The notes under the pieces are model-generated. The model saw only the letters and a list, made by a program, of their open reading frames with translations, was not told the origin of the DNA and made no database searches. This document shows positions 8,042 through 25,836 of a stretch of DNA of 64,000 nt, one piece after another; within the stretch, counting starts at the first letter, position 1; every line of letters starts with the position of its first letter. The position numbers and the translations under genes are program-made. Location: contig OV299793.1 of the NCBI GenBank assembly GCA_923184405.1, positions 96,264 through 160,263 on the forward strand, written 5' to 3'. The stretch comes from Neisseria meningitidis (GTDB taxonomy: Bacteria; Pseudomonadota; Gammaproteobacteria; Burkholderiales; Neisseriaceae).

Positions 8042-8060
8042 TTTTCCGCCTTTCCGACAA

Positions 8061-8095: not shown

Positions 8096-8139
8096 GCTAT
8101 GATAGCCGCTATCGGTCTGCACCGTTTGGAAGGAACATC

Positions 8140-9160: not shown

Positions 9161-9169
9161 GGCAAACCG

Positions 9170-9366
9170 ATGAATACCGTCCCAAAAGCAGGATTCCGTC
9201 AAACCGCTGCCCGAAAAAACCACAGACGAAGCCAAAGTCGAAAAATGGCGGCAGCTCGGTGCGGAAACACAGTTTGTCGGGCGAATGGGCAGTTGCCGTC
9301 AGATTGGGCGAAAACGGTTTTACCGAAGAACAGATGGAAAATATCGCCAACCTGTTCGGCAGATAA
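9170..9366 (+). CDS. short hypothetical protein, frameshifted
   Basis: ATG at 9170, nine bases after the preceding lipoprotein stop. After correcting two small frame errors it reads a hydrophilic protein of about 65 residues that includes KTTDEAKVEKWRQLGAETQF and ends in RLGENGFTEEQMENIANLFG. I do not recognise a family. It is probably cotranscribed with the lipoprotein gene, or was once its C-terminal extension. Confidence 0.45.
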
Positions 9367-9560
9367 AGGGAAAATTGACGGAAATGCCGCCAGAAACCCT
9401 GTTATCAGGTTTCAGACGGCACTTTAACTAATACAGTACGCAGGCGCAAAACAGCAGGCTTTCCCTGTGTTGCCTATGCTGATGTTTCAACACGCAGGAC
9501 GATACAACAAGCGTAGCCCCATGTGCCGTCCTGATTCGAAAGGGTTACGATCCTCCCAAA

Positions 9561-9715
9561 TATAGTGGATTAACAAAAACCAGCACAACGTTGACTCGCC
9601 TTAGCTCAAAGAGAACGATTCTTTTAGGTGCTGAAGCACCAAGTGAATCGGTTCCGTACTATTTGTACTGTCTGCGGCTTCGTCGCCTTGTCCTGATTTT
9701 TGCTAATCCACTATA
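9561..9715. repeat. Correia repeat enclosed element, long type (155 bp)
   Basis: TATAGTGGATTAAC at the left and its inverted copy TAATCCACTATA at the right bound a 155-bp element flanked by TA. The length matches the longer class of Correia elements that keeps the internal block with an integration host factor site. The right terminus reads GCTAATCCACTATA, one change from perfect. It lies beyond the 3' end of the fadL-like gene and may be folded and cleaved by RNase III in read-through transcripts. Confidence 0.93.
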
Positions 9716-9730
9716 AATCAAGCCTAAAAC

Positions 9731-9768
9731 AATGCCGTCTGAAACGGAAATCTGTTTCAGACGGCATT
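9731..9768. terminator. inverted uptake-word terminator (fadL-like gene)
   Basis: AATGCCGTCTGAAAC and GTTTCAGACGGCATT form a perfect 15-bp stem with an 8-base loop, located just past the stop of the leftward outer membrane protein gene. Confidence 0.85.
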
Positions 9769-9791
9769 GCTACAATCAAACGGCGGGCCGT

Positions 9792-11194
9792 TTATTTGAA
9801 TTTGTAGGTGTATTGCAGGCCGATGATGTCGGCGTGGTTTTTGAAACGTGCGGAAGACGCGCCCTTGCTGTCCACATCGTTGCCGCTTGCCTTCGACATA
9901 GCGGTAGCTGAAGTCGTTGATGTGGATGTGGGTGTAGGCGGCATCGACGACGTGGTTGTTACCGATATGGCATTTCATACCGGCGGAGAACCAGATGCGG
10001 TTGCCGTCAGGTAGGCTGTTCATGCGGTAGTCGGCGTTGCAGACGGGCGATTTGTCAAAAGCGATGCCGGCGCGCAGTTGCAGCGGTTCGCTCATTTGAT
10101 AAGAACCGCCGAAGCCGACTTTGTAGGTGTTGCACCAGTTCGGCGTGATATTGCTGCGGTCACATTCCCCTTTAACGTCGCTTGTTACTTATTCAAAAAC
10201 CAGTTCCGCTTTAACGAAACCACTATTTAACGTCCCCGTTACGTCACCGAACAGAACCGATTCATCTGACTCTTTGTACATACCATGTACGGACAAACAC
10301 TCAGGCGTAACCATTTTAACGCCAGCCTTCACATCCACCATGAAGCCGTATTGCTGCAAGCATCGTACTCCACATGGCTTTCGCCGCCACACCGTCTGCC
10401 GCCCATTCGGCATCACAGTTGAGCGTGTGCGAGACAATGGAAAGGTAGTTCTTGCACGCGCGCGCAAGGTCGTTCATCTCTGACATCCACGCCAGTTGGT
10501 AGCCGAAGCCCCAATCGCTGCCTTTGACATCATCGTGTCCGTCGGCCTAAATTTTTGCAGCTTCGGCTACACCGTTACGTTTGGGCGGTTTTGCAGACAA
10601 TATGTCTGCTTTACTCTTAATCCCCCAGTCGGCATATTTGCGCAGCTCGGCGGAAGTATGTTGGCCGATGATACCTGCGCCGAAGGAATGGCGGTCGTTG
10701 AGTTTCCATGCGGCGACAGGTTCGACGGCGATGCTAGTCAGACCGAGTTTGTTGATGTTGTGGCGCAACACGGAATCGTTATCGTATTCGGTGGCAGAGC
10801 CGAAGGGGACGTACACGCCCAAGCCCACGGTCAGATTGTCGTTGACTTTGTATGCGCCGTAGATGTGGGGCGCGACCGTGGTTTTGGTGATTTTGCCGCT
10901 TTTCGAACCTTGGACGGGAAGCCCGGTAAAGTCGGTGGCGGAATCCGCCTCATAATGAATGCTGGGCAGCACGATGTTGGCGTTGACGGAAATTTGGCTG
11001 CTGTCGATTTTGCTCAAACCGGCAGGATTGTAGAAAATGGTTGAGGCATCGGCGGCTTCGGCGGCGGCGGCATTTGCCGTACTTTGCGCGTTGACCGACT
11101 GTGTGCCGAAGTGGTAGCCGGATACGTGGACGGATGCGGCGGCAAAGGCAGTGCCGAGCAGCAGGACGGTTTTTTTCAGTGCGGAAGGGGTCAT
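9792..11194 (-). CDS. FadL/OmpP1-family outer membrane protein, frameshifted in C-terminal half
   Basis: FadL-type 14-stranded barrels import hydrophobic compounds across the outer membrane. The N terminus has a signal peptide (KKTVLLLGTAFAAASVHVSGYHF) and then the family hallmark STIFYNPAGLSKI. Barrel-like segments continue to about 10550 (VAPHIYGAYKVNDNLTVGLGVYVPFGS; SIAVEPVAAWKLNDRHSFGAG). Past 10550 the frame changes repeatedly, but the ending recovers as a barrel C terminus QYTYKFK. The start is the ATG at 11194, 35 bases from a Correia element that probably supplies or alters its promoter. A uptake-word terminator and a second Correia element lie downstream. Confidence 0.82.
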
Positions 11195-11228
11195 TTCGGT
11201 TTCCGTAAAAAGGCGGACGGTGGATAAA

Positions 11229-11334
11229 TATAGTGGATTAACAAAAATCAGGACAAGGCGACGAAGCCGCAGACAGTACAGATAGTACGGCAAGGCGAGG
11301 CAACGCTATACTGGTTTAAATTTAATCCACTATA
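11229..11334. repeat. Correia repeat enclosed element, short type (106 bp)
   Basis: TATAGTGGATTAAC and TTAATCCACTATA termini enclose 106 bp, the size of the short class lacking the internal block present in the two 155-bp copies here. It sits in the promoter region of the leftward fadL-like gene. Confidence 0.93.
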
Positions 11335-11442
11335 AAAAAGGCAGTCGGAAATGCCTTGTTTCGCTTTAGTATAGGTACTCAATTTTATCTGATGTTGCCG
11401 GATTTGCACAATTTTTTCGGTTTTACCTGACGGAATGCAAAT

Positions 11443-11487
11443 AAAATGCCGTCTGAAGCCTCGGGCATCGACTTCAGACGGCATTTT
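11443..11487 (-). terminator. inverted uptake-word terminator of pyk
   Basis: AAAATGCCGTCTGAAG and CTTCAGACGGCATTTT form a 16-bp stem 15 bases past the pyk stop; the symmetric A/T flanks would allow termination from either side. Confidence 0.85.
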
Positions 11488-11501
11488 CCACTCAGGGCGG
11501 A

Positions 11502-12973
11502 TTATTTGACGCGCAGCACTTCCAGTGTGTTGGTCGAACCGGATTCGCGCATTTGCGAGCCGCTGGTAATGATGTATTGGTCGCCGGAATGCAGGATGTT
11601 GTGTTCCACCAGCATGGTTTCGACTTCGTTTAACGCCGTGTCGTGGTCGGTGCTGGTTGCCAAAATCAGCGGGCGCACGCCCCGGTACATCGCCATACGG
11701 CGTTGGGCGGAAACGCTCGGGGTCAGCGCGAAAATCGGCAGGGTGATGTTGTGGCGGCTGATTTCAAAGGCGGTCGAACCGCTTTCGGTCAGGGCGACGA
11801 TGGCTTTGGCGTGAACCGCGCGCGCCACGCTGACCGCACCGCCAGCAACCGCCAGGTTGGTGCTGACCGCTTCGGGATACTCGACCTGTTCGGCAACGCC
11901 GTTGAGCGAATCCTGCTCTTTTTCCGCAGCCGCGCAGATAATCGCCATTTGGCTGACGGTTTCAAACGGATACGCGCCGACGGCGGTTTCGGCGGAACAC
12001 ATCACCGCATCGGTACCGTCCAATACCGCGTTTGCCACATCGCTGACTTCCGCGCGGGTCGGTACGGGGTTGGTAATCATCGATTCCATCATTTGCGTCG
12101 CCGTAATGCTGAAGCGGCGCAACTCGCGGGCGCGGCGGATCATCCGTTTTTGCAGGGCGGGGACGGCGGCGTGTCCGACTTCGACCGCCAAGTCGCCGCG
12201 CGCAACCATAATGCCGTCGCCGACGAGGATGATTTCGTCAAAGTTTTCAATCGCTTCTACGCGTTCGATTTTGGAAACCAAACCAGGGCGCACGGCCGTG
12301 CTGCCTTTCATTTCTTCTTCGACTTTGGCGCGCGCGATATGCAAATCTTCGGCGGATTTCACAAAGCTGATGGCGAGGTAGTCGCAACCGATGGCAATCG
12401 CGGTTTTCAGGTCGCGGAAGTCTTTTCGGTCAACGCGCCTGCGGACAGACCGCCGCCGCGTTTGTTGATGCCCTTGTTGCTTTTCAGGACGTGGCTGTTT
12501 TCCACCCTTGTGATAATCCTGCTGCCTTCGACGGATTCCACGGTCAGGGTCAGCAGGCCGTCGTCCAGCCACAAGACATCGCCTGCGGCAACGTCATCGG
12601 GCAGGTCGCGGTAGTCCAAACCGACCGCCTCGCGCGTGCCTTCGCCTTCAAGCGCGGCATCCAGTAGCAGCGTTTCGCCTTTGTTCAATTCGATGCCGCC
12701 GCCGGCGATTTTGCCCACGCGGATTTTCGGCCCTTGCAGGTCGGCAATGATGGCGATTTCCTGTCCGGCGCGTTTTGCCGCTTCGCGCACGATGCGGGCG
12801 TTTTCCTGATGGAATTCGGGCGTGCCGTGGCTGAAGTTGAAGCGGACGACGTTCAGGCCGCCGACGCGGATCATATCTTCCAACAGTTCGACGTTGTTGC
12901 TGCCCGGCCCAAGGGTGGCGACGATTTTGGTGTTGTGGCTGATGCGGGTCAGATCGCGGCTTATCCAGTTCAT
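11502..12973 (-). CDS. pyk: pyruvate kinase, one frameshift near 12420
   Basis: Cytoplasmic enzyme converting phosphoenolpyruvate and ADP to pyruvate and ATP. The N-terminal block TKIVATLGPGSNNVE, the substrate motif VVRFNFSHGT, IADLQGPKIRVG, and the barrel motifs SFVKSAEDL, KIERVEAIENFDEI, DGIMVARGDLAVEV and MMESMITNPVPTRAEVSDVANAVLDG are all present, followed by the C-terminal allosteric domain. The one frame error lies where LTEKDFRD should read through, and fits loss of one A from a run. Full length about 490 residues, normal. The gene is monocistronic. Confidence 0.95.
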
Positions 12974-13181
12974 ATGAAAGTCCTTTTGGTCTCAATCGGG
13001 TGTTTTGCGGTATTTTGTTACAAAATTACAGAAATTTGGAACAGGTTTGATGTCCATTTGATGAACGCGGCGGAATATTCTGTAAAAATATGATTTAAAT
13101 TAATAGTTTGATATTTTACCTGCAAACCGCCTTTTTTGGTGCAAAATTACACGGTTTTATGACTTAGGCTAAATTTATTTT

Positions 13182-13926
13182 GGGACTGTCCTAGATAACT
13201 AGGGAAATTCAAATTAAGTTAGAATTATCCCTATGAGAAAAAGTCGTCTAAGCCAGTATAAACAAAATAAACTCATTGAACTGTTTGTCACAGGTGTAAC
13301 TGCAAGAACAGCAGCAGAGTTAGTAGACGTTAATAAAAATACCGCAGCCTATTAGTTTCATCGTTTACGATGACTTAATTTATCAAAACAGTCCGCATTT
13401 AGAACTGTTTGACAACGAAGTAGAAGCACATGAAAGTTATTTTGGCGGACAACGCAAACGCAAACGCAGTCGCGGTGCTGCAAGTAAAGTCGCCGTATTC
13501 GGTCTTTTGAAGCGAAATGGTAAGGTTTATACCGTTACAGTACCGAATACTCAAACCGCTAAATCATTGCCTATTATCCCTCAACAAGTCAAACCTACAT
13601 AATTTGTTTTACGAACTGTTATCGTAGCTATGATGTATTAAATATGCGCGAACTTTGCCTTATTTAACTTCGCATGAAACTTCGTTTTGGTATAAAACAC
13701 AGCACACATTTAACCGAACGACAAAACCATATGAATGGACTTGAGAACTTTTGGAACACAGGCAAAACGACATTGATGCAAGGCTAACGGCATTCCCAAA
13801 GCGCATTTCAAGCTGTATTTAAAGGAGTGCGAGACGACGTTTTAACATCAGTCGAGATAAAACTTCTTGCTACCATTTTAAATCAATTAGTAAAATCAAG
13901 TAGATCTTAGTAATACTAGGACAGAA
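13182..13926 (+). mobile_element. IS1016 copy A (IS1595 group), decayed
   Basis: About 745 bp bounded by imperfect inverted ends GGGACTGTCCTAGATAACTAG and, at the right, CTTAGTAATACTAGGACAG. It encloses a damaged transposase and marks the left edge of the accessory island. Its right terminus is degraded compared with copy B at 19831. Confidence 0.85.
13233..13845 (+). pseudogene. IS1016 transposase remnant, copy A
   Basis: Begins MRKSRLSQYKQNKLIELFV, identical in layout to copy B, then reaches an in-frame stop at NTAAY, where copy B reads NTAAYYFHRL. Later recognisable pieces are VEAHESYFGGQRK (copy B has VEADESYF, an acidic catalytic residue) and AHFKLYLKECE. The D-to-H change at the DDE-type position, nonsense codons and small indels make it inactive. 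Confidence 0.85.
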
Positions 13927-14426
13927 AAGTCTCTGAAGGGATATCATTCAGAATAGCAAACCCATTTTAGAAAGCAAAATTACGAAATTGTTACAGCTGA
14001 CTAAACCCTCATGGAAAACAAAATAATGACACTAATTAATTACAAACAAAGAATTCAAAAGCACAGAATAATATCAGCAACTCCTGTAGTAAACGAAATA
14101 AGGTACATGTAAGATACGATCAGAACAATTGAACAATGGTTCAAAACAACCTGCCAACATCAGAACGCCCGTTCGCTGGTTTGTACGTCCTGAAAAAGCT
14201 CTTGCATTAAGTTAATCATAATGGGAAAGTTAAATTCTATTAATGTTTACATAAACAAAAGACGAACTAAACCATTACGAGTTTCTTATTACAGTATACA
14301 AGTAAATATTTTTAAAATATTGATTTAATTTAAAATAAAATAGTTGCAAAAAAAGTATTAAATTAAACTTAAGAAAGGTTAATTCTGATTTACATTTCCA
14401 ACCATACTTCTTTACAGGAGAAAATC
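13927..14426. other. AT-rich spacer after IS1016, no supportable gene
   Basis: About 500 bases, very AT-rich. A short frame around 14150-14215 reads NIRTPVRWFVRPEKALALS before a stop and may be the tail of a lost gene, but nothing upstream supports it. The last 100 bases should carry the promoter for the precursor gene at 14427, whose ribosome site ACAGGAG lies 8 bases before its ATG. Confidence 0.4.
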
Positions 14427-14661
14427 ATGAAAGAGTTACACACCTCTGAATTAGTTGAAGTGTCAGGTGGCAAATTCCATATCTCTGCACAGGGTGGCGG
14501 CAACCTAGGTAAAAAGATATGGTTGCTGTTGGTAAAATTGGTGCTTCCTATTCCCTAACAATAGTGGAGTAGAGTTTTCTGTTAGCAAGCAATTTGGATA
14601 TGTACAAGGTTTTGGTGTACAGTTTTCGAAACCTACTTTTGGTTTTAGTAAAAAATGGTAA
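14427..14661 (+). pseudogene. double-glycine-leader bacteriocin-like precursor, frameshifted
   Basis: Starts MKELHTSELVEVSGG, a classic double-glycine leader (hydrophilic, L..EL..VSGG) of the kind cut by C39 peptidases during export. The mature part begins KFHISAQGGGNLGK. It is then interrupted: as read it stops at 14558, but two frame changes recover NNSGVEFSVSKQFG, a Gln/Gly/Phe-rich core, and the end KPTFGFSKKW. Total about 78 residues. It is the first gene of the cluster that also carries the export pair at 15890-19430. Function as bacteriocin or signalling peptide is inferred from leader and context. Confidence 0.68.
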
Positions 14662-14881
14662 GATTTTTTGTTTTATCCTTTCTGACATTAATAAATCTAT
14701 GCTCATTAAGCGCATGCAATAGCCACTTTACAGGAATATCAATCCATTAGGTACTCACAATAAAGTTGCTAATCGCAATTGTGCTAATAGTGCCAATAGT
14801 GTATATCAGACAACCCAGTGGTAAAACTATGATCCAACTGAATATAGTGCTTAGTTACAGCATATGCATGATTGCAAATAA
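14655..14881 (+). pseudogene. small lipoprotein overlapping the precursor stop, damaged
   Basis: ATG at 14655 overlaps the precursor's last codons (ATGGTAA), suggesting translational coupling. It reads MVRFFVLSFLTLINLCSLSAC, a lipoprotein signal with lipobox LSAC, then NSHFTGISI. After a frame change at 14750 a Cys-containing tail follows (NRNCANSANSVYQTTQW, then YDPTEYSA), with two nonsense codons, ending HMHDCK. About 75 residues. Small lipoproteins coupled to bacteriocin genes often serve as immunity or export accessory factors; that is inference. A short signal-peptide frame alone could arise by chance, but overlap and Cys pattern favour a gene. Confidence 0.5.
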
Positions 14882-14937
14882 TGAGTAACGATGAAAATTT
14901 ACGTTTTTCTCAACCACACTTAACAAAGGTGAATATT

Positions 14938-15162
14938 ATGTAAGTTTTGACTTTGAATGAAATTTAACAAGTTTCTGGTGCTGCTTGTAACTGGCGTGAT
15001 TTCTCAAAAAATACCATTGGTAGTGCATTAGGTGGAACAGCTGGAGGGGCAATTGTTGGTTCATTTGCAGGTGGTATTGGTGCTATTCCAGGTGCGAAAT
15101 TCGGAGCTATTCGTGGTGCAATCACTGGTGCTGTACAATATGGAAGCACTTGTTGGTGGTAA
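14938..15162 (+). pseudogene. second double-glycine-type bacteriocin-like precursor with two nonsense codons
   Basis: One frame from ATG 14938 to TAA 15160-15162, broken only by TAA at codons 2 and 10. The leader reads LTLNEI.QVSGA, a Gly-Ala variant of the double-glycine site. The mature part holds the glycine-zipper-rich stretch TIGSALGGTAGGAIVGSFAG then GIGAIPGAKFGAIRGAITGA and ends YGSTCWW. Repeated GxxxG spacing is typical of two-peptide class II bacteriocins and of Neisseria/Gram-negative microcin-like peptides. Both stops would be CAA (Gln) with one C-to-T change. It is followed by a strong terminator hairpin. Confidence 0.72.
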
Positions 15163-15173
15163 TATTGCTTAAT

Positions 15174-15219
15174 AAAACTAGGGTATTTTGATATTTTCTA
15201 TTCAAAATACCCTGGTTTT
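15174..15219 (+). terminator. hairpin after second precursor
   Basis: AAAACTAGGGTATTTTGA pairs with TCAAAATACCCTGGTTTT around a 9-base loop. The T-rich 3' side suggests a Rho-independent terminator 12 bases past the precursor stop. Confidence 0.75.
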
Positions 15220-15250
15220 CATAGAACTTAAATACAAAAAGGAACAAATA

Positions 15251-15424
15251 ATGAAAAAATATAGTGATTATTTTAAATATTTAATCACTTTTTTGATTTT
15301 ACTCCCAACAAATTATCTCATATCTCATTATGTGGAACAAACCTCAAATAAGTATGTTAAGCATTTTAAGTTCTTCTATAATAACAACTTGCCTTTTTTT
15401 TGTTTTACAAATTTATCACAGTAA
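15251..15424 (+). CDS. small membrane protein, candidate immunity gene
   Basis: 57 codons from ATG 15251 with a ribosome site (AAGGAAC) 7 bases upstream. It has one clear membrane segment (YLITFLILLPTNYLISHYV) flanked by positive residues, then a hydrophilic loop. A frame change near 15400 would give a slightly different C terminus. No family recognised. Small membrane proteins next to bacteriocin precursors commonly protect the producer, which is the only reason to suggest immunity. Confidence 0.5.
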   Translation: MKKYSDYFKYLITFLILLPTNYLISHYVEQTSNKYVKHFKFFYNNNLPFFCFTNLSQ

Positions 15425-15442
15425 AAACATAAATAAGTACAC

Positions 15443-15630
15443 ATGTCTAACAATCACTCATTTTTCCAGACCAGAAGTCTTTGCTAACTAATACTGGAAC
15501 AAGTGGACAGGACCAGTAGGCTGGGTTCACGCAATTGGAGCTGGTATTTTCTCTAAGGCTAGCGGATACAAGATCTGATCGAGCGCATGATGAAGCCATG
15601 CAAAATAATTACACCATTAAGGAAAGGTAA
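15443..15630 (+). pseudogene. hybrid remnant: exporter-adaptor start joined to bacteriocin-like tail
   Basis: The opening (MSNNHSFF, then PEVFAN in another frame, then NKWTGP) resembles the start of the HlyD-type gene at 15890 (FRKEVFVAQQNKWTG), with about 45 similar bases. Instead of the adaptor's membrane segment it continues GPVGWVHAIGAGIFSKASGYKI, a bacteriocin-like Gly/Ala-rich tail. Two frame errors and stops make it non-coding as read. It looks like a recombination product. A 20-codon frame at 15703 (MNTETIYDYCLLHF) lies in the spacer before the adaptor gene and is not called. Confidence 0.4.
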
Positions 15631-15889
15631 TCTCAGTTACAGCAATATGCATTGAAGTTACCTTTTTCTATTTAGGATTGAACAATTTTGAAAGAGAAAA
15701 ATTATGAATACAGAAACCATTTACGACTACTGTCTTTTGCATTTTAAGCTGCAAAGCCATTTCTAGATTAGTGGTTAAATTTAATGTAATTAAAATAGAA
15801 ACATTAATCAATAGCAAATTTATGTGATTAGGCATAAGTATTTAATTATTGGTGTTTTTCTATCCATATTGTTTAAGAAATAATAATAA

Positions 15890-17345
15890 ATGTCCCACTT
15901 ATTCCGAAAAGAAGTCTTTGTAGCCCAACAAAATAAGTGGACAGGTCAGGTTATCTTGACCCGTCCATTCTCTTTTTATTTCTGACTTTTTGCGCTTTTC
16001 TCATTGCTCTGTGTATCATTATCATTTTGATTTTAGGTAGCTATACCAATAAAACAATCGTTGAAGGTCAATTACTTCCAACTATAGGGGTGGTTCGTGT
16101 TTACTATTCCGATATCGGCACGATTACGCATAAATTTGTTGAAGATAGTAACTTTGTCAAAGATTGCGAAACATAGATCAACTGTCCACATCGCGTTTTG
16201 GCGAAACAGGTTACGTTCAAGTTAAATTGGCAGCAGAAGCCAACATTAAAAACACTATAGCATTACAAGAATTGGAACGAATAAAGCGCATTCATGAAGA
16301 TGATCAAATAATTGATCATAACAAGATTCAGCGTTTACACTACCTATTAGACAATATTAAACAGCAAATTACTGTTGAAGATGGTCAAATTCGTAAAGCT
16401 GAACAAACCATTAACCAGAACATCTCCACAGCGAGTCATGGCGCAGAATCCCAACAAGACAAGATGACCGCCGAAAGCCATTCAATAAAACAACGCTTCA
16501 AGTTTGCAGAGCCTAAAGCGCCAACAAAAAAATGCAAGCAAAAAACTTGATGAACAGAAAATCACGTTTAAACAGCCTACCTGAAAGCCATAAAACCAAA
16601 TTGAGCCAACTCAACAATGCGATTACGGAAATGAACCAAGAAATTTTGGATTTTGATGTGAAATCCTAACAAGACCATACGAGCGCAGTAAATCAAGTTG
16701 ATACCTTTGCAAAAGTAATATGTTAACAAAACTTGAAGCATAATAACGCGTCACGAAATTATTCAATTGCCTAAAACCTACCTGAGATTCAGCAAAAAGT
16801 AGGCAAAAACACCAAAGCTTTGCAATTTGAACATGAAATTGAGCATAATATGTAAATAACCAAACTTATTGCAAATAAATCAGGTTATATTTCAACAATT
16901 AATGTTGATATAGGGCAACAAGTTGAACCGTCTAAATTGCTGTCAAGCATTGTCCCTGAACAAACTGAACAGGTCGCCAATCTTTACATACCCAGTAAAG
17001 CTGTTGGCTTTATTAAACCGAAAGATAAAGTTATTTTACGTTACCAAGCGTACCCTAACCAAAAATTCTGGACATGCCACAGGAGAAATTATTTCAGTTG
17101 CCAGAACTGCTCTCGGTAAACAAAAGCTATCAGGTTTAGGTATCATTTTCACTAACCCAACCTTATTAAATGAACCTGCCTATCTTGTGAAAGTCAAATT
17201 GGAAAAACAAACGATTAAAGCATACGGAGAAAACAAGCCGCCTCAAATTGGCATGATTTTAAAAGCAGATATTCTCCATGAACGAAAAAAATTGTACGAA
17301 TGGGTACTTGACCCACTTTACAGCATTTCAGGAAAAATCAATTAA
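15890..17345 (+). pseudogene. HlyD/CvaA-family export adaptor (membrane fusion protein), heavily frameshifted
   Basis: Periplasmic adaptor that links an inner-membrane peptide exporter to an outer-membrane channel. MSHLFRKEVFVAQQNKWTGQ precedes a membrane segment (LFLFLTFCAFLIALCIIIILIL) and then the HlyD lipoyl-like half GQLLPTIGVVRVYYSDIGTI. A long coiled coil follows (16200-16650; IALQELERIKRIHEDDQII, LDNIKQQITVEDGQI). The second half-motif ANKSGYISTINVDIGQQVEPS and the C-terminal barrel-adaptor region GLGIIFTNPTLLNEPAYLVKV end at 17345. Full span about 485 codons; more than six breaks including nonsense codons. It sits three bases before the ABC exporter gene, the normal pair order. Confidence 0.78.
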
Positions 17346-17347
17346 AA

Positions 17348-19430
17348 ATGGATTATTTATCAAGACTGTCCTTTGGATTTAACAAAAAGCTACCTGTCAT
17401 TCTGCAAACAGAAGTTGCTGAATGTGGTTTAGCATGCCTGACATCCATCTTGTCCTATTATGGCTTTCACACTGATTTAAGAACGTTACGCCAAAAATAC
17501 ATCCTGTCATTAAAGGGCGCAAATCTTGCAGACATCATGAGATTTGGCAATGAAATGAATTTAACGCCACGAGCTTTGCGTTTAGAGTTAGATGAGCTGT
17601 CAAATTTACAACTACCCTGCATTCTCCATTGGAACTTAAACCATTTTGTTGTACTTTGTTCCATTTCCAAAGACAGTATCGTCATTATGGACCCTGCTGT
17701 CGGTATGAGTAAAATCAAAATGGACGAAGTTTCACAAAAATTCACAGGGATTGCCCTAGAATTATTCCCCATTACCCATTTTGAAGAGAAAAAAGAAACA
17801 AAGAAAATCAAAATATTATCTCTATTAAGGGGATTTCAGGCTTAAAACGCTCTTTAATTCAAATGCTTATATTAGCTATTTCTTTGGAAGTCTTTGCATT
17901 GGTTAGTCCATTCTTTATGCAATGGGTAATAGACCATGTCATTGTAACTGCTGATAAAAATTTATTACTGACCCTTACTTTGGGATTTGGTTTACTGGCT
18001 ATCCTGCAACAGTTAATTAGCCTGTTACAAGCATGGGTAGGTATGCACCTATCTACAACTCTTAATTTACAATGGAAAGCCAATATATTTAAAAGGTTAC
18101 TTGACTTACCTAATGACTATTTCAGTAAACGACATTTAGGAGATGTGATTTCAAGATTTGGTTCAATAGATCATATCCAAGAAACACTAACTTCTACTTT
18201 TTTGTTTTAGTTTTAAATAGCTTAATGGCTATTTTTACTTTCGTGTTAATGACAATTTACAGCACTCAATTATCGCTGATTGTTCTTTTAACACTTGTTT
18301 TGTACATACTAATTCGTTGGCTTGCATATTACCCATTAAGAAATGCAACAGAAGAAAATATTGTTCATGAAGCCAAACAAAACTCATATTTCATGGAAAC
18401 CATTCGTGGTATCCAATCAGTTAAATTATTTGATAAACATTATCAAAGACATGGCACTTGGATGAGCCTATTTGTGAATACAGTCAATACCAAGCTGACA
18501 ACAGATAAACTCTCTGCTTTATTTGAATTTTCAAATAAACTGTTGTTTAGCATGGAAAATATTATCATAATTTATCTTGGTGCAAGCGCAATTTTAGATG
18601 GTTCATTTACAGTCGGTGTTCTGATGGCTTTTTTGGCTTATAAAGGGCAATTTGAAAGCAGAACAGCTTCTCTCGTTGACCAATACATCCAAATCAAAAT
18701 GTTAGGGCTTCATGCTGAACGTTGACTGACATTACTTTAAATGAAACAGAAACTGAAATTATTAAGTACAATCATATACCTAAATTAGATAATGAACAAC
18801 TGGTTCTTAAAGTTGAAAACGTCTCATTCAGATATGCTGATAACGAGCCATATCTTTTTGAAAACATTAATTTAGAATTTAAAGATAATGAAGCAGTTGT
18901 TTTAACAGGACAACTGATCGGGGGAAGTCCACTTTGTTAAACATTTTAACAGGTAGCCTAAAACCTGAAACTGGTACAGTTAGTATTAATGGGCATGATA
19001 TATATCAAGTTTCTCCATCCTTTATTAGGGGATTGAGCAGGATTGTTCGCCAAGATGATGTCCTTTTGCAGGTTCTATTGGGGAAAATATTTCATTTTTT
19101 GATGAAAGCCCAAATATGGAGCTCATTGAACAATGTGCAAAAATGGCACAAATACATGACGATATACTTAAAATGCCAATGGGCTATGAGACCTTGATTG
19201 GCGATATGGGAAATATCTTATCAGGTGGACAAAAGCAGAGAGTTATCTTGGCTCGTGCATTGTATAAACGACCCAAAATTCTATTACTAGACGAAGCAAG
19301 TAGCCATTTAGATGTAGAAAATGAACAAAAAATTAACCATAACCTAAAAAGTCTTGGTATTATGAAAATAATGGTTGCACACCGCCAAGAAACAATTCAA
19401 TCAGCAGATAAAATTCTGAATTTAGGTTGA
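17348..19430 (+). pseudogene. C39-peptidase ABC exporter (CvaB/LagD type), frameshifted
   Basis: Bifunctional transporter that removes double-glycine leaders and exports the peptide. The N-terminal C39 domain has QTEVAECGLACL (catalytic Cys), HWNLNHFVVL (catalytic His) and MDPAVG. Six membrane segments follow (17860-18660). The nucleotide-binding domain shows VSFRYADNEPYLFENINLE, a Walker A disrupted by indels near 18915, the Q-loop region IVRQDDVLL, signature LSGGQKQRVILARAL, Walker B ILLLDEASSHLD and H-loop MVAHRQETI. Frame changes near 17845, 18210, 18720, 18915 and 19070. All catalytic elements except an intact Walker A are present, so the gene could be whole in reality. Confidence 0.85.
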
Positions 19431-19437
19431 ACAGAAC

Positions 19438-19476
19438 AAGACTTCATTTTTCTTTAACAAAAAGTGAAGTCTTTTT
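19438..19476 (+). terminator. Rho-independent terminator of the export operon
   Basis: AAGACTTCA and TGAAGTCTT form a 9-bp stem followed by TTT, 8 bases after the exporter stop. Confidence 0.8.
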
Positions 19477-19499
19477 CAAATAATTTAATAGAATACATG

Positions 19500-19827
19500 A
19501 AAATAGCGGTTTAATGCTCCATTTACCAATCATCACGACTGGCTTAGTGTTTCCGCGATTTTTCAGTTTCCTATCTCTGTTGAATTTGTTGCTTTTTCTG
19601 CCCTCGTTCCCATTTCTGAGCTAATTTCACGGTCTAACTTTCAGCACATTCCATAATGTCAAAACGATGTAGCTTCAGAAGGATATCGCGAGTAAAACTA
19701 GCTCCACGAACTGCACCACAAATTCTTGAAAATTCGTGATCACACTCAATGTCTCGAGCATTTAGTTCAAAGGATTTCTGGCACTGATCACACACTACAT
19801 CAAACTCAATCAAAGGGATATTTTTTA
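19500..19827 (-). pseudogene. hypothetical protein remnant with CxxC motif
   Basis: On the minus strand a frame cut off by IS1016 reads IPLIEFDVVCDQCQKSFELN, then ARDIECDHEFSRICGAVRGA, and stops at CAES. After frame changes a basic tail follows (RKLKNRGNTKP...GKWSIKPLF). The CDQC pair and later cysteines suggest a small metal-binding protein. Its 5' end lies at the left inverted repeat of IS1016 copy B, so the insertion probably removed its start. Family not recognised. Confidence 0.35.
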
Positions 19828-19830
19828 AGC

Positions 19831-20570
19831 GCCTATCCTAGATAACTCAGGGAAATTCAGAATTAAGCTAGAATTATCCCTATGAGAAAAAGTCGTCTAA
19901 GCCAGTATAAACAAAATAAACTCATTCAACTGTTTGTCACAAGTGTAACTGCAAGAACGGCAGCAGAGTTAGTAGGCGTTAATAAAAATACCGCAGCCTA
20001 TTATTTTCATCGTTTACGATTACTTATTTATCAAAACAGTCCGCATTTGGAAATGTTTGACGGCGAAGTAGAAGCAGATGAAAGTTATTTTGGCGGACAA
20101 CGCAAAGGCAAACGCGGTCGCAGTGCTGCCGGTAAAGTCGCCGTATTCGGTCATTTGAAGCGAAATGGTAAGGTTTATACGGTTACAGTACCGAATACTC
20201 AAACCGCTACTTTATTTCCTAATATCCGTGAACAAGTGAAACCTGACAGTATTTTTGATACGGATTGTTATCGTAGCTATGATGTATTAGATGTGCGCGA
20301 ATTTAGCCATTTTAGCTTCGCTGAAACTTCGTTTTCGTATCAATCACAGCACACATTTTGCTGAACGACAAAACCATATTAATGGAATTGAGAACTTTTG
20401 GAACCAGGCAGAACGTCATTTACGCAAGTTTCACGGCATTCCCAAAGCGCATTTTGAGCTGTATTTAAAGGAGTGCGAATGACGTTTTAACAACAGTGAG
20501 ATAAAAGTTCTTGTTCCATTTTAAAACAATTAGTAAAATCAAGTTTGTCCTAGTTATCTAGGACAGACCC
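19831..20570 (+). mobile_element. IS1016 copy B (IS1595 group)
   Basis: About 740 bp. The left end reads CTATCCTAGATAACT and the right end TAGTTATCTAGGACAG, forming inverted repeats. It carries a nearly intact transposase and lies at the right border of the export operon, in the same orientation as copy A at 13182. Confidence 0.9.
19882..20482 (+). CDS. IS1016 transposase, one frameshift near 20325
   Basis: IS1595-group DDE-type transposase. It has an N-terminal helix-turn-helix-like region (LIQLFVTSVTARTAAELVGV), VEADESYFGGQRKGKRGRSA with the first acidic residue, FDTDCYRSYDVLDV with the second, and ENFWNQAERHLRKFHG near the C terminus with the third acidic region. A frame change between FSHF and HFAERQNHINGIENFW splits it. 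Length about 200 residues, normal for this element, and only this copy could be active. Confidence 0.88.
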
Positions 20571-20606
20571 TTGTATTTTGTTCGGCGGCTTGCGTGGTCG
20601 GGTAAA

Positions 20607-21158
20607 ATGAAAGTTTTGAACGGTTGGTCGGACAGGAAGATGTGGCGGGTTTTGAGTGCTTTGCCGATAGGCGTGGTGTTTTTTGATTTGATCTACGGTT
20701 TTGTGTTGAATGTGTTGCAGGGTTTGGATTTGCAGCGTGCCGTGCCGGATTTGGAAGGCGTGTTGGCGGTTACGCCCGATATTGCATCCAACAGTTTGCA
20801 GATTGTCGCCAACGGCGGTATGGCGGCGGTGGTCTGTTTCGGGTTGGCGGTTGTGTTTTTGATCAACCGTTCGGTGCGGCGGCGGCAGGTGTTGGAAATC
20901 GGGGTGTTCCGGATGTTGGGGCTGGTGGCGGTATTGGCGTTCAGCGCGCCGTCGGTGTGGGAGTGGGCGAACGCGCTACCGCTGCTGCTGAAGGGCGCGG
21001 ACGTGGTCAATACGGGGAATGCGCGTTATGTGCTGACGGCTTTGTGTATGCCCTTTCCGGCGGTGTCGTGCGTCATCGGGCTGGTGGGGCGGTTCAGGCT
21101 TCAGACGGCATCGGGCAGGGCGGCAAAGTCAGGGGGTGCGGGCAAGGCGGACGGATAG
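20607..21158 (+). CDS. four-helix membrane protein of unknown function
   Basis: Intact frame of 183 residues from ATG 20607 (a TTG at 20571 upstream lies inside the IS end). Four hydrophobic segments are visible: ALPIGVVFFDLIYGFVLNVL, AAVVCFGLAVVFLI, MLGLVAVLAFSAPSVWEWA and LTALCMPFPAVSCVIGLVG. The C terminus is basic and glycine-rich and includes an uptake word. GC content is normal for the genome, so it marks the end of the AT-rich part of the island. Resembles small inner-membrane DUF2231-like proteins, but I cannot assign a family. Confidence 0.6.
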   Translation: MKVLNGWSDRKMWRVLSALPIGVVFFDLIYGFVLNVLQGLDLQRAVPDLEGVLAVTPDIASNSLQIVANGGMAAVVCFGLAVVFLINRSVRRRQVLEIGVFRMLGLVAVLAFSAPSVWEWANALPLLLKGADVVNTGNARYVLTALCMPFPAVSCVIGLVGRFRLQTASGRAAKSGGAGKADG

Positions 21159-21250
21159 GACGCATTTTTCAGCGGGTGCGTCGAGAAGCAGCCGATGTGT
21201 TTGGCAGCCGCAGCTTGGGGGTGTAGTGCTAATGGCGGTTTCTTTGCTTT

Positions 21251-21405
21251 TATAGTGGATTAACAAAAACCAGTACGGCGTTGCCTCGCCTTAGCTCAAA
21301 GAGAACGATTCTCTAAGGTGCTGAAGCACCAAGCGAATCGGTTCCGTACTATTGGTACTGTCTGCGGCTTCGTCGCCTTGTCCTGATTTTTGTTAATCCA
21401 CTATA
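21251..21405. repeat. Correia repeat enclosed element, long type (155 bp)
   Basis: TATAGTGGATTAAC and GTTAATCCACTATA bound 155 bp nearly identical to the copy at 9561, including the internal block with the AAAGAGAACGATT segment. It lies between the converging membrane protein and the C39 peptidase gene, past both 3' ends. Confidence 0.93.
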
Positions 21406-21461
21406 TAAAATAAATGGGCAAAAATCGGTTTATTATCGTTTTTGCCGCATTTGGATTTGTT

Positions 21462-22090
21462 CTACTGTAAAACGTGTTTGACGAACGGGATTCTTATTAA
21501 AAACATCTGATTTCTAACAAAATCAGTATTTTTTGGCACGATGGCTAAAATTTTTCCTCCCATTTCGCCATCACGTGTTTTCCATGCGCTCAAGAATTGT
21601 GATTTGCTCATTGAGACGTGCCCCAGCGATGGATCAGCCAGCAAAACAGTTTCTCCGTTAATACCGTTCAATACCGAAAAATGGTTGTTTTTACGGTATT
21701 TTAAATACACAATTACAGGAATTTTTAGTTGTACCAACTGTTCAAATGGCAAAGCATAACCTTGTGCTTCAAAACCCAGTTCGGGCATTATGCGTTGCAT
21801 ATCATCAAAAGAAGCACGCATTTGGGTTTTATCCATTTTGTCCAAGATTTCCGCTTCAGAATAATGTCTGCCATAAAAATTATTCAGTAACGTGGCAATC
21901 GAAGCCGCGCCGCAAGAAAAATCCAAATCTTGTTTTACTATGCCGGAATCTCGCCGTGCTTTCCAACTCCGTACATGGATGTTTTGGTAAGAAGCGGGGT
22001 TTCAGCAAATATAGGGTAAGCAAAAACAATATTTGGGATAAAGCCAATTAAAACCGCATAGTTTATTAATTTAGAAAGATTTTTTATCAT
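21462..22090 (-). CDS. stand-alone secreted C39-type peptidase, one frameshift near 21940
   Basis: About 209 residues. ATG 22090 opens a signal peptide (MIKNLSKLINYAVLIGFIPN then IVFAYPIFA). The C39-like core follows: LDFSCGAASIATLLNNFYG (catalytic Cys), PVIVYLKYRKNNHFSVLNGI (catalytic His in NHF) and LLADPSLGHVSMSKSQFL (Asp). Unlike the ABC exporter it has no transporter domain and should act in the periplasm or at the cell surface. It is divergent from the export operon, with a bacteriocin-like precursor gene upstream in the same direction, so it may mature that peptide. Frame change near 21935. Confidence 0.8.
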
Positions 22091-22310
22091 AATATATATG
22101 CGTAGAATAAACGCATGAAACATAAAAAAATAAAATCATATGCAATTTTATTGCATGAATAAATATGAATAAAATAGATAATGATGGGAGTAAATACGCC
22201 ATGTATTTTGGAAGTTTAAATTTATTAATAATAAAATAATTTATCGTAGCGCAAATAAATCCCAAAATTGGAACGATTAGAAAAAAATTAATACACCCAT
22301 CATCATGCAA
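22071..22310 (-). CDS. small two-helix membrane protein
   Basis: 79 codons overlapping the start of the C39 peptidase gene by 20 bases. Three hydrophobic stretches: FFLIVPILGFICATINYFII, YLLPSLSILFIFIHAI and LHMILFFYVSCVY. AT-rich like the precursor cluster. Position between a bacteriocin-like precursor and its candidate protease suggests an immunity role, which is inference only. No family recognised. Confidence 0.5.
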   Translation of the reverse strand: MHDDGCINFFLIVPILGFICATINYFIINKFKLPKYMAYLLPSLSILFIFIHAIKLHMILFFYVSCVYSTHIYYDKKSF

Positions 22311-22326
22311 ACTCTATATTAATAAA

Positions 22327-22362
22327 TAGCTAACTAATTCTATTGTGGAAATTAGTTAGCTA
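22327..22362 (-). terminator. terminator hairpin after the fused precursor gene
   Basis: TAGCTAACTAATT and AATTAGTTAGCTA form a perfect 13-bp stem. On the minus strand it lies 18 bases past the precursor stop and runs into ATTTATT. Confidence 0.75.
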
Positions 22363-22380
22363 ACTAAAAGTTATTAATGA

Positions 22381-22985
22381 TTATTTCCGAGAATTGACTG
22401 CATTGTTGGCAGCATTGGCCCCAAAACCTAGTGCATGAATACCCGGTCTCCATGCCAAATTTCCAGCCAATCCGCCTCCGGCAGCAGCAGCCAGCCCTGT
22501 TTTGCCGCTACTCCTGTTGCCGCACCGATTCCTGCCGCAGTAGCCGCGCCTTGCGCAGTTCCTAATTTACCATGATTATACAAATTAGCACCATGATACT
22601 CCCATGCACCTAATGCACCGCCAAAAGCAGCGGCTGCAATAATGGGAACAAATTCACCTTGTGTTTCTTTCATTTCAGCCTGTGATAATTGAATTGCTTT
22701 CACATTTTGGCTGTCAAAAACTTGGCTGTCTAAATTTTGCGCCATTACAGGTGTAATCATCATAGCCATTACAGTTGCAATTTTCGTTGCGCTGGTTTGC
22801 ACATAAATAGGATTAGCAAATTCGCTTTGATTGCGTTCAGTGTTGATGTAGCTAATACTGCTTTCTAGTTTGAATTTACCCTTGTCAGTCAATAATTCTT
22901 CCAAACTTAAAGGTAAGTCAGCATAAGCAATTTGGCTGGCAACAGTCAAAATAAAATCTATTAGACATTTGTGTTTTTGCATCAT
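22381..22985 (-). CDS. bacteriocin-like precursor fused to the N terminus of an outer membrane protein
   Basis: One frame joins two unlike parts. Residues 1-68 resemble the start of an outer membrane protein (ADLPLSLEELLTDKGKFKLE, then SSISYINTERN...PIYVQT). From KIATVMAMMITPVMAQ onward it looks like another gene's signal peptide, then a leader IQLSQAEMKETQGEF and a Gly/Ala-rich tail (IIAAAAFGGALGAWEY, GTAQGAATAAGIGAATG) typical of class II bacteriocin-like peptides. A frame change near 22490 hides the true end, which reads RPGIHALGFGANAANNAVNS and stops at 22381. The lost OMP remainder and the lost start of the second gene suggest an internal deletion. The C39 peptidase gene follows. Confidence 0.6.
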
Positions 22986-23025
22986 TTCGTTTGATTTTCT
23001 AGTTTTGAGAATGATACAAAGTTTT

Positions 23026-23377
23026 TTACAAAGTAAAAGTCACTCTGAAAAAACTTTTTTCATTATAAATCAAAATATTGATAGAATAAATAGCGAGCAT
23101 CGATTCACGGTGTACTTTAGTGCAAAGCGTACAACGCGAGCCTGAACCACCAGCCGCAACAGGAAAGAAAGCCGATAGAGTGCAATGCTTGCCAACGTGC
23201 AAGCGAGCTTGCAGAACGCTTGGCTCAACGAGAGCAGGCAAGACAGAAAGCAGAAAGCAGGATAGGAGCGGTAACGCAAAGGTCTCAGGCTTTGATTTCG
23301 CCGTAAACCCTGGTGCCGCCTTGTACGGAAAGGGTGCAGGCGGCGAGTGCCGACAGGGTGCAGATGGGGAGGGGGTT
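23026..23377. other. spacer of uncertain coding content
   Basis: No convincing gene. A plus-strand frame near 23150-23260 reads ECNACQRASELAERLAQREQ, which looks like a coiled coil, but it has no start, end or neighbour to support it. The stretch separates the AT-rich precursor gene from the GC-rich housekeeping block and may be a remnant from the island edge. Confidence 0.35.
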
Positions 23378-24214
23378 TCATTTGGGGTCGCAACGGAAGT
23401 GGTATGCGCAGATTTCAAACCGTTTTGAAATACAGGCGGTGCGCGTCAGCACGGTCGTGGTTGACGTGGACGTTGAGGTGGATTTTGGTTACCCTGTTTC
23501 CGCGCCGATTTTGCGGACTTCTTCCAAAAGGCGCGAGGCGTAGCCTTGCGGCGGCTTTGCGGCAGGGTAACGATGTCATCGATGTGGATGTGGCGGCCGC
23601 TGGCGAGGTGCAGGCTTCGCGGAAGCCGCAGACGGCGACGGCATTGTGTTTGCGCTTCTTCAAAAATACCCAGCAGGCGGTAGCCTTAGGGGCGTTGGAC
23701 TTTGTTGATCTGTTCGGTAAAGCGGTTGATGTCGGTCAGGGCGGAACGCAAAACGCTCAAGGCTGCAAAGGCGGTGGCGGTGTCGTCCGCGCCGATTTCG
23801 CGCAAAACGTAGGATGCGCCCGAGGCGGTCTGTTCCTGTGCTTTCTCGGCGGCGTGTTTTTCTTCGATTGCCTGTGCCAGCATGACGTGTTCGTCGGCAG
23901 GGTTGTTTTGTCCGCCCTGTTCGCGTTCTTCGAGCAGGGCTTTGCAGTCGATGACGCGCAGGTCGTTGTCGGCGGCAAAGTCCATCAGGAAGCGGAACAT
24001 TTGGGGGTTGTCGGTTTCCAGTTTTTATCGACGGCGACGCAGCGGATGTTGTCCACCAGCATAGGGCGCACCCATTTCGAATAGGAAAGCCTGTGGTCTT
24101 TGGTGAACGAGGACAGAATGCCGCACAGGCGTTCCGCCCAATCGCTGGGACGGAAAATCTTGCCGGAACTCGTTGTGCCGTGGATGACGACTTCGTAGGG
24201 TTGCAGACTAACAT
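23378..24214 (-). CDS. DUF3579 domain plus GNAT acetyltransferase domain protein, frameshifted
   Basis: The N-terminal part (from about 24214) reads VSLQPYEVVIHGTTSSGKIF, then RPSDWAERLCGILSSF and PQMFRFLMDFAADNDLRVID, typical of DUF3579, a short beta-proteobacterial domain of unknown function. After an acidic linker a GNAT domain follows: ASGASYVLREIGADDTATAF, AVCGFREACNLASG-like, IDDIVTLPQSRRKGYASRLL (acetyl-CoA binding R..G.A motif) and HLNVHVNHDRADAHRLYF. Frame changes near 24205, 24020, 23690 and 23520. One fused gene or two adjoining genes are both possible. pyrB starts divergently upstream. Substrate of the acetyltransferase unknown. Confidence 0.7.
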
Positions 24215-24450
24215 GGCGGCTTCCTGAAAAGAAATGTCCGGCGCGATTATACCTTATGCTTATGCGGGCGTGTTTGGATATGCCGTCTGAAAAGTACGGG
24301 ATTCGTGCGGTAAAACTTTGCGGCGGCAAATGTGCGATAATACGCGCCGTATTGCCGCTTTTGCGAAGCTGTTCCGCAAACATACGGGCGGCGTGGACGA
24401 CGTATAACCGGATACCCGCCTGACGCGGGTTTTTACGGAAGGGGGGCAAA

Positions 24451-25368
24451 ATGCCTAATCCGCTTTACAGACAGCATATCATCTCCATTTCGGATTTGTC
24501 GCGCGAACAGTTGGAATGCCTGCTTCAGACGGCATTGAAGCTGAAGCGCATCCGCGCGGCGATTTGTTGGAAGGCAAACTTATCGGTTCGTGCTTCTTTG
24601 AACCGTCCACGCGCACGAGGCTGTCGTTTGAAACGGCGGTGCAGCGGCTGGGCGGCAAGGTCATCGGCTTTTCGGACGGCGCGAATACCAGTGCCAAAAA
24701 GGCGAGACGCTTGCCGATACCGCCCGCATCATTTCCGGCTACACCGACGCAATCATCAACGCCACCCCAAAGACGGCGCGGCGCGCGTGGCAGCGGAGTT
24801 TTCGCGCGTCCCCGTCATCAACGCAAGCGACGGCACCAACCAGCACCCCAGCCAGACCTTGCTGGACCCGGTTACCATTTATGAAACGCAGGGACGTTTG
24901 GACAAGCTCAAAATCGCCATGGCGGGCGACTTGAAATACGGACGTACCGTGCATTCGCTTTGTCAGGCGTTGAAACGCTGGGGCGGCGAATTTGCCTTTG
25001 TTTCGCCGCCCAGCCTCGCGATGCCCGACTACATTACCGAAGAGTTGGACGAAGCTAACTGCCGATACCGTATCCTCGGTAGTTTGGAAGAAGCGGCGGA
25101 ATGGGCGGACATCCTGTATATGACCCGTGTTCAACGCGAACGTTTCGACGAACAAGAATTTGCCAAAATCCAAGGCAAATTCAATCTCGACGCATCCATG
25201 CTTGCCCGCGCCAAACCGAACCTGCGCGTGCTGCACCCTTTGCCGCGCGTGGACGAAATCCATCCCGATGTCGATGCTACGCCGCATGCCTATTATTTCG
25301 AGCAGGCGACCAACGGCGTTTATGCGCGTATGGCGATATTGTCGCTGGTGTTGAACGAAGAAGTGTGA
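24451..25368 (+). CDS. pyrB: aspartate carbamoyltransferase catalytic subunit, frameshifted near 24545 and 24700
   Basis: Condenses carbamoyl phosphate and aspartate, the committed step of pyrimidine synthesis. Carbamoyl-phosphate motif [17 protein letters not shown] is clear (in the second frame), followed by [59 protein letters not shown] and [16 protein letters not shown]. The breaks fit loss of an A at KLKAHPRG, a G at SAKKGETL and a compensating change near 24770. Start ATG 24451 with GGAAGGGGGG upstream. pyrI follows after 9 bases, so the two subunits are cotranscribed to form the regulated enzyme. Confidence 0.95.
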
Positions 25369-25377
25369 GGAACCGAT

Positions 25378-25836
25378 ATGGAAATCACGAAACTCAGTGT
25401 CGAAGCCATTGAAAAAGGTACGGTTATCGACCATATTCCCGCCGGCAGGGGGCTGACCATCCTGCGCCAGTTCAAACTTTTGCACTACGGCAACGCGGTA
25501 ACCGTGGGCTTCAACCTGCCCAGCAAAACCCAAGGCAGCAAAGACATCATCAAAATCAAAGGCGTGTGCTTGGACGACAAAGCCGCCGACCGCCTCGCCC
25601 TGTTCGCCCCCGAAGCGGTGGTCAATACCATCGACAATTTCAAGGTCGTGCAGAAGCGGCATTTGAACATGCCCGATGAAATTGCCGAAGTGTTCCGTTG
25701 CCCGAACACAAATTGCGTCGGCTACGGCGAGCTAATCAAAAGCCAGTTTTATGTTAAAAAACACAACGGGCAGACGCGGCTGAAATGCCATTACTGCGAA
25801 AAAACCTACAGCCGGGATTCAGTGGCGGAAGCCTGA
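25378..25836 (+). CDS. pyrI: aspartate carbamoyltransferase regulatory subunit
   Basis: Intact 152-residue protein. The N-terminal allosteric domain includes [20 protein letters not shown], nucleotide-binding for CTP and ATP feedback. The C-terminal zinc domain has four cysteines in the expected pattern: CPNTNC and CHYCEK. It binds PyrB to form the PyrB6-PyrI6 holoenzyme. The 9-base spacing from pyrB and shared direction show one operon. One of few uninterrupted genes in this stretch. Confidence 0.97.

What the first reader, a model, noticed from the sequence alone, without database searches (positions are those of the whole stretch)
14427..19430. Bacteriocin-type island: several double-glycine precursors with their own C39 ABC exporter and HlyD adaptor
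Two clear precursor genes (14427, 14938), a possible third tail (15443), a candidate lipoprotein and a candidate membrane immunity protein precede an adaptor-exporter pair. The exporter retains the catalytic Cys and His of C39 and the Walker B and signature motifs. All is AT-rich against GC-rich flanks and bordered by IS1016 copies, suggesting transfer as a unit. Peptide sequences look little studied for Neisseria.
Basis: partly seen in the sequence, partly recalled or inferred. Interest (0 to 1): 0.8.

Follow-up and report, generated by a model that had tools for sequence, protein, structure and literature searches.

The report
Known Neisseria bacteriocin export island
This is a Neisseria gene island for making and exporting small antibacterial-type peptides that has already been described in meningococci; the copy in this window is full of what look like sequencing errors, so it cannot be judged working or dead from these letters.

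Summary
The island is real. Beside a pykA-like gene, between two same-direction IS1016-type copies, lie two double-glycine precursor genes, a lipoprotein-like gene, two small membrane-type genes, an HlyD-type adaptor and a C39 ABC exporter, at 31-37% GC (upstream 49-60%). A gonococcal record carries the same locus at the same site with adaptor, exporter and both precursors open; a second differs from it by one base in 7.1 kb.

Decay is not the likelier reading: genes that look like rpoB, rpoC, fusA and tuf are broken too, so the sequence is error-rich.

The system is in print: C39 exporter, adaptor and double-glycine peptides in meningococcus 8013; NMB0097/NMB0098 needed for meningocin activity. 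Novelty is low.

Small additions: an island-free relative keeps one IS1016-type copy at the site; precursor 1 and the lipoprotein recur as neighbours in a distant Neisseria, pointing to the lipoprotein as immunity protein; the 'third tail' begins with a duplicated adaptor N-terminus.

The parts
13173..13924 (+). left IS1016-type copy (broken transposase frames)
   Evidence: blastn to the gonococcal right-hand copy and to the single copy in G001
14427..14661 (+). precursor 1, double-glycine leader; open for 43 aa only, with frame changes further on
   Evidence: open 78-aa gonococcal homologue L101:6274-6510; 2 frame-shifting gaps
14655..14881 (+). lipoprotein-like gene (lipobox LSAC), broken in the window (31 aa open); candidate immunity protein for precursor 1
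   Evidence: gonococcal 75-aa homologue L101:6504-6731; a homologue lies next to a precursor-1 homologue in L135
14938..15162 (+). precursor 2, glycine-zipper class II type; two in-frame stops in the leader
   Evidence: gonococcal relatives named 'Blp family class II bacteriocin'
15251..15424 (+). small hydrophobic membrane-type protein; candidate immunity protein for precursor 2
   Evidence: gonococcal 62-aa ORF; a 49-aa hydrophobic ORF follows the precursor-2 relative in L134 (similarity of the two not tested)
15443..15600 (+). 'third tail': duplicated adaptor N-terminus fused to a glycine-rich tail, broken in the window
   Evidence: gonococcal 50-aa ORF L101:7298-7450; residues 1-24 match adaptor starts, residues 22-48 match a separate precursor ORF in G026 at 4.2e-4; weak in pairwise BLAST
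15704..15841 (+). remnant of a small membrane-type protein
   Evidence: gonococcal 45-aa ORF L101:7551-7688
15890..17345 (+). HlyD/CvaA-type adaptor in up to five pieces, with about 170 extra bases at 16704-16875
   Evidence: open 421-aa gonococcal homologue
17348..19430 (+). C39 peptidase ABC exporter (CvaB type) in six pieces
   Evidence: open 695-aa gonococcal homologue
19833..20604 (+). right IS1016-type copy, same direction as the left one
   Evidence: PF12762

Best explanation
This is the published meningococcal-type double-glycine peptide (meningocin) secretion locus, or an allele of it, seen through an error-rich sequence of a Neisseria that is probably not the gonococcus. In the intact form, the C39 domain of the exporter cuts the precursors after the double glycine. 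The ABC exporter, the HlyD-type adaptor and an outer-membrane channel encoded elsewhere then export the cores, which most likely inhibit related Neisseria that lack the matching immunity proteins. The lipoprotein-like gene next to precursor 1 and the small membrane-type protein after precursor 2 are the likely immunity genes. The island enters or leaves this site by recombination between IS1016-type copies. Shown by sequence: gene content, synteny, leaders, domains, an island-free site with one IS copy. Inferred: cleavage, export, killing, immunity.
For: N. gonorrhoeae record L101 carries the locus at the same site with adaptor, exporter and both precursors open; L102 differs from it at 1 base in 7.1 kb and its two precursors were listed open. 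The window exporter differs from L101 at 15 of 2088 bases plus five frame-shifting gaps. C39, ABC membrane, ABC ATPase and HlyD domains of L101 pass curated Pfam cut-offs. Precursor 1 is 96% identical to a 157-member cluster whose named record is N. meningitidis, and a gonococcal hit is named 'putative bacteriocin/pheromone'; gonococcal precursor-2 relatives are named 'Blp family class II bacteriocin'. The exporter's cluster P0021 (100% identical, unnamed) stands for 896 sequences. Strict leader motif: 24 ORFs in 8 of 13 exporter loci, all on the exporter strand; 0 in 97,403 bases of neighbouring loci. G001 has one IS copy and no island. Published: C39 unit with double-glycine peptides in strain 8013 (PMC2784325, passages); NMB0097/NMB0098 deletions abolish inhibition (Allunans 2008 as told in PMC9263626, passage); island IHT-A2, with some lineages having non-functional secretion genes (PMC9072670, passage).
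Against: Meningococcal reference genomes were not met in the collections I searched, so identity with NMB0091-NMB0098 rests on anatomy, recalled gene order and the meningococcal precursor cluster, not on a direct alignment. Neither precursor reaches a curated family cut-off (PF10439 22.3 of 27.1 bits; TIGR03949 13.6 of 21.5). The Naps, other double-glycine peptides of the gonococcus, had no detectable antibacterial activity (PMC11798529, parts 1-2 of 8 read), so killing is not assured here. Gonococcal precursor alleles with shifted C-termini exist (P0007, P0012), so true decay does occur in the family.
Confidence: 0.85

Rival explanations
1. The copy in this strain is truly a dead remnant. Published work reports remnants of this secretion unit in some meningococci, so the frame breaks would be real mutations.
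Against: Frame-shifting gaps occur at similar rates in genes that must be intact: 13 in 4.2 kb of an rpoC-like gene, 4 in 2.1 kb of a fusA-like gene, 1 in 4.2 kb of an rpoB-like gene, against 5 in 2.1 kb of the exporter. G001 and the gonococcus, compared with each other, show only 1.07 and 0.22 one-base gaps per kb.
Confidence: 0.25
2. The peptides act on their own producers (autolysis or signalling) rather than as weapons, like the gonococcal Naps or as the pheromones proposed in NeMeSys.
For: Naps: no antimicrobial activity, autolysis role (PMC11798529, parts 1-2 of 8). Pheromone role proposed in PMC2784325 (passage).
Against: A different locus: the nap island has other flanks, a stand-alone C39 peptidase and an FapF-like channel; a term search of that paper's main text finds neither 'ABC transporter' nor 'meningocin'. 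Candidate immunity genes sit beside the precursors here, and loss of the exporter or adaptor was reported to abolish inhibition.
Confidence: 0.15
3. The frames are chance open frames around an exporter that serves an unrelated substrate.
For: Short ORFs; family cut-offs not reached.
Against: Leaders and cores are conserved in the gonococcus and, for precursor 1, in L135; 0 chance hits in 97,403 bases and in 300 random sequences.
Confidence: 0.02

Closest known systems
Meningococcal double-glycine peptide secretion unit, strain 8013 NMV_0104-0106 (NeMeSys); meningocin locus NMB0097/NMB0098, island IHT-A2
   Same: C39 ABC exporter, adaptor and several double-glycine peptides; the window's site beside a pykA-like gene fits (that NMB0089 is pykA is recalled)
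   Different: the window copy has broken frames, most likely sequencing errors; no direct alignment to the reference genomes was possible here
N. gonorrhoeae 2022NG-0032 and 2022NG-0076 locus (L101, L102)
   Same: same site, same gene order, exporter 99% identical in DNA outside gaps (L101)
   Different: open frames; left IS copy truncated; lacks about 170 bases of the window's adaptor region
Moraxella catarrhalis McbABCI (pLQ510)
   Same: adaptor and C39 exporter (43% and 55% identical to the gonococcal proteins), short double-glycine bacteriocin with immunity gene
   Different: precursor and immunity genes lie downstream of the exporter; one peptide; killing and immunity shown by experiment (PMC2761928, passages)
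E. coli colicin V (CvaA, CvaB, CvaC, Cvi)
   Same: overall plan of adaptor, C39 exporter and glycine-rich double-glycine peptide (recalled)
   Different: several unlike precursors, and a lipoprotein-like candidate immunity gene
Neisseria nap island (NapABC)
   Same: double-glycine peptides on an AT-rich island in pathogenic Neisseria
   Different: other site, stand-alone C39 peptidase and FapF-like channel, autolysis role

Membership tests
C39 peptidase ABC exporter (CvaB type) | N-terminal C39 peptidase domain | tested here: met
   PF03412 5.4e-36 in the window piece, 3.4e-36 in the gonococcal homologue
C39 peptidase ABC exporter (CvaB type) | ABC membrane and ATPase domains in one protein | tested here: met
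   Single 695-aa frame in L101 with PF00664 and PF00005; in the window only as separate pieces
C39 peptidase ABC exporter (CvaB type) | complete Walker A in the window copy | tested here: inconclusive
   A frame change near 18910-18922 falls at Walker A; cannot be told from a sequence error
Class II double-glycine bacteriocin or microcin | double-glycine leader on a short gene beside a C39 exporter | tested here: met
   Both gonococcal precursors; one of two in the window
Class II double-glycine bacteriocin or microcin | curated family score (PF10439, TIGR03949) | tested here: not met
   PF10439 22.3 of 27.1 bits for precursor 2; TIGR03949 13.6 of 21.5 bits for precursor 1; precursor 2 was given without its first three residues
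Class II double-glycine bacteriocin or microcin | kills other bacteria, with cognate immunity | not testable with these tools
   needs a bench assay
Meningocin locus (IHT-A2, NMB0091-NMB0098) | same genes at the same chromosomal place | tested here: inconclusive
   Precursor 1 of L101 is 96% identical to a cluster named N. meningitidis; reference genomes not available here; gene order and place recalled
nap island | stand-alone C39 peptidase and FapF-like channel between NEIS0794 and NEIS0808, no ABC exporter | tested here: not met
   C39 is part of an ABC exporter and the site is beside a pykA-like gene

The most novel reading that the evidence does not exclude
Precursor 1 and the lipoprotein are a portable toxin-immunity pair that travels without an exporter: the pair sits together in the gonococcal-type island and, about 570 kb from that genome's exporter, in a distant Neisseria. 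A lipoprotein immunity gene would mean that this peptide acts at the periplasmic side or outer membrane, not at the inner membrane as recalled for microcin V. New cassettes would be added to the island just upstream of the adaptor, as the duplicated adaptor start fused to another peptide's tail suggests.
Probability: 0.35. Interest if true: 0.45.

Novelty: already known. Interest (0 to 1): 0.2.

Why it matters
It settles that this is a known kind of Neisseria competition locus and not a new island, and warns that the window's sequence quality forbids any claim about whether the genes work. The useful extra is a testable guess at which small genes are the immunity genes: a review of 2022 (PMC9263626, passage) says the genes for the meningococcal bacteriocin itself had not been identified.

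Tried and rejected
Pseudogene reading: not the main explanation, because genes that look essential are broken in the same window; some true decay is not excluded. Phage origin: megablast of window 8000-26000 against 50,697 phage records found nothing. Nap island membership: rejected on site and gene content. Third precursor: the 50-aa gonococcal ORF has no double-glycine leader; 13 of 46 genus genomes matched it, nearly always at the adaptor-like start, and the tail matched one separate precursor in 1 genome (4.2e-4); pairwise BLAST of that tail gave only 6 aligned residues at E 0.08, and the small proteins that follow did not align. A tblastn of it against phages gave two records of one Delftia phage at E 0.7, taken as chance.

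Spread of the small genes in 46 genus genomes: precursor 1 in 1; precursor 2 in 10, four of them over the full query at E 1e-7 or better and the rest weak; the membrane-type protein after precursor 2 in 0, which without a positive control shows little. Order-wide: the precursor-1 alignment matched 1 of 399 genomes and the lipoprotein alignment 5 of 399, all at E 0.001-0.01 and chance-like; G025, which holds the known second copy, is not among the matches and so was presumably not drawn. The pair therefore rests on two loci.

Leader motif: 5 of 13 exporter loci had no strict hit: L103 is Moraxella, whose precursor lies downstream; L104, L105, L107 and L108 have looser leaders. The adaptor's extra 170 bases matched nothing convincing. 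Species of the window: not established. It shares 27% of sampled words with G001; in core DNA mismatches are 3.2 and 4.9% to G001 and 5.3 and 6.5% to the gonococcus, errors included, and it is collinear with G001 where the gonococcal match is in pieces. In one search the control ORFs include antisense frames over the same genes and two tuf copies; only the rpoB-, rpoC- and fusA-like ones are used for rates. Those gene names, and pykA and FadL, are my recognition, not a call. Slip: the precursor-2 queries used L101:6797-7012, which begins three codons after its ATG at 6788. PMC13375697 was looked at (passages) and not used.
Full report
What is there. Window 13173-20604 holds, in one direction: an IS1016-type copy, a double-glycine precursor (14427), a lipoprotein-like gene, a second precursor (14938), a small membrane-type protein, a chimeric short frame (15443), another small membrane-type protein, an HlyD-type adaptor (15890-17345), a C39 ABC exporter (17348-19430) and a second IS1016-type copy. 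GC is 0.31-0.37 over 14000-19499 and 0.49-0.60 over 8000-12999; downstream it is 0.51-0.53 over 20500-21499 and then low again (0.31-0.40) to 22999.

State of the genes in the window. Six tblastn pieces with five frame changes cover the exporter with 12 of 13 query exporters, and up to five pieces the adaptor. Precursor 1 is open for 43 aa only. The leader of precursor 2 has two in-frame stops.

Errors or decay. Against its nearest held relative G001 the window shows 3.65 and 3.71 one-base gaps per kb in two core stretches (about 39 kb aligned); G001 and the gonococcus show 1.07 and 0.22 per kb over 11.2 and 13.9 kb of those stretches. Genes that look like rpoB, rpoC and fusA carry 1 (4.2 kb), 13 (4.2 kb) and 4 (2.1 kb) frame-shifting gaps in the window, yet are open in G001 and, by tblastn, each in one piece without stops in the gonococcus. 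The exporter carries 5 in 2.1 kb with only 15 mismatches to the gonococcal copy. The lesions therefore say nothing reliable about function. Like for like, against the gonococcus, the island has 6.05 one-base gaps per kb, the core stretches 4.98 and 2.86, and the pykA side 5.46. So the island is only a little worse than its surroundings, and some real decay is not excluded.

Open copies. Two N. gonorrhoeae records of 2.17 Mb (filed as plasmids in PLSDB, chromosomes by their size; 2022NG-0032 from synovial fluid and 2022NG-0076 from blood) carry the locus at the same site. In L101 the adaptor (421 aa), exporter (695 aa), precursor 1 (78 aa from its ATG) and precursor 2 (74 aa) are open. L102 differs at 1 base in 7.1 kb; its precursors were listed open, its adaptor and exporter were not listed separately. 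The exporter's 90% cluster stands for 896 sequences, without a name. Exporter homologues at E 1e-50 or better occur in 15 of 46 genomes of the genus, three of them partial.

Leaders against chance. A strict leader motif with ATG start gives 0 hits in 97,403 bases of neighbouring loci from G001 and the gonococcus, on both strands (these loci overlap in gene content), 2 in the gonococcal island, 1 in the window island, 0 in the rest of L101 and of the window, and 0 in 300 Markov-generated sequences. In up to 7 kb upstream of 13 other exporters it gives 24 hits in 8 loci, all on the exporter strand.

Mobility. In G001 the segment matching window 9561-13924 and the segment matching 19833-23998 overlap in one single IS1016-type copy. 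The occupied site is IS, island, IS in the same direction; the empty site keeps one copy. This fits gain or loss by recombination between the copies, but does not tell which state is older. A precursor-2 relative in G033 (54% identical) also lies near a transposase that looks like the same family (by eye).

Likely immunity genes. In the gonococcus the two genes overlap by 7 bases. The G025 pair lies at 539 kb and that genome's exporter at 1,112 kb. Two loci are few, but adjacency of both partners suggests a toxin-immunity pair. After precursor 2 a small hydrophobic protein follows, as also in L134; similarity between these two was not tested.

The chimeric frame. The gonococcal 50-aa ORF at L101:7298 begins with 24 residues matching adaptor N-termini of other Neisseria and ends with a tail matching part of a separate double-glycine precursor in G026. 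The tail match is weak. It looks like a recombination scar at the adaptor start.

Verdict. Real, ordinary, already described; the window copy cannot be judged for function. Interest 0.2.

Noticed in passing
whole window, e.g. 42401-61140: Sequence is error-rich throughout: rpoB-, rpoC-, fusA- and tuf-like genes, a pykA-like gene (11502-12973) and a FadL-like gene (10547-11293) are broken, with about 3.7 one-base gaps per kb against G001 (gene names by recognition).
   Followed up: yes
21462-21926 (- strand), with 21938-22123: Stand-alone C39-like peptidase (PF03412) just beyond the right IS copy, preceded by a frame with a signal-peptide-like start. A weak C39 match at the corresponding place in island-free G001 suggests that it is not part of the island.
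   Followed up: partly
L101 and L102 (NZ_CP119142.1, NZ_CP119140.1): Two gonococcal records of 2.17 Mb, chromosomes by their size, are filed as plasmids in PLSDB.
   Followed up: no
16704-16875: About 170 extra bases in the adaptor region that are missing from the gonococcal copy and match nothing convincing in the loci compared.
   Followed up: partly
13925-14171 in the window; L101:5323-6018: The left end of the island does not match between the window and the gonococcus, and the gonococcal left IS copy is truncated.
   Followed up: no
9561-9715, 11229-11337, 21248-21405: Dispersed repeat of up to about 155 bases, Correia-type by recall, at several places in the window, G001 and the gonococcus.
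   Followed up: no
21500-22999: A second AT-rich stretch (GC 0.31-0.40) beyond the right IS copy.
   Followed up: no
L110, L112, L113: Other Neisseria exporter loci carry several different double-glycine precursors each (4, 6 and 4 by the strict motif).
   Followed up: no
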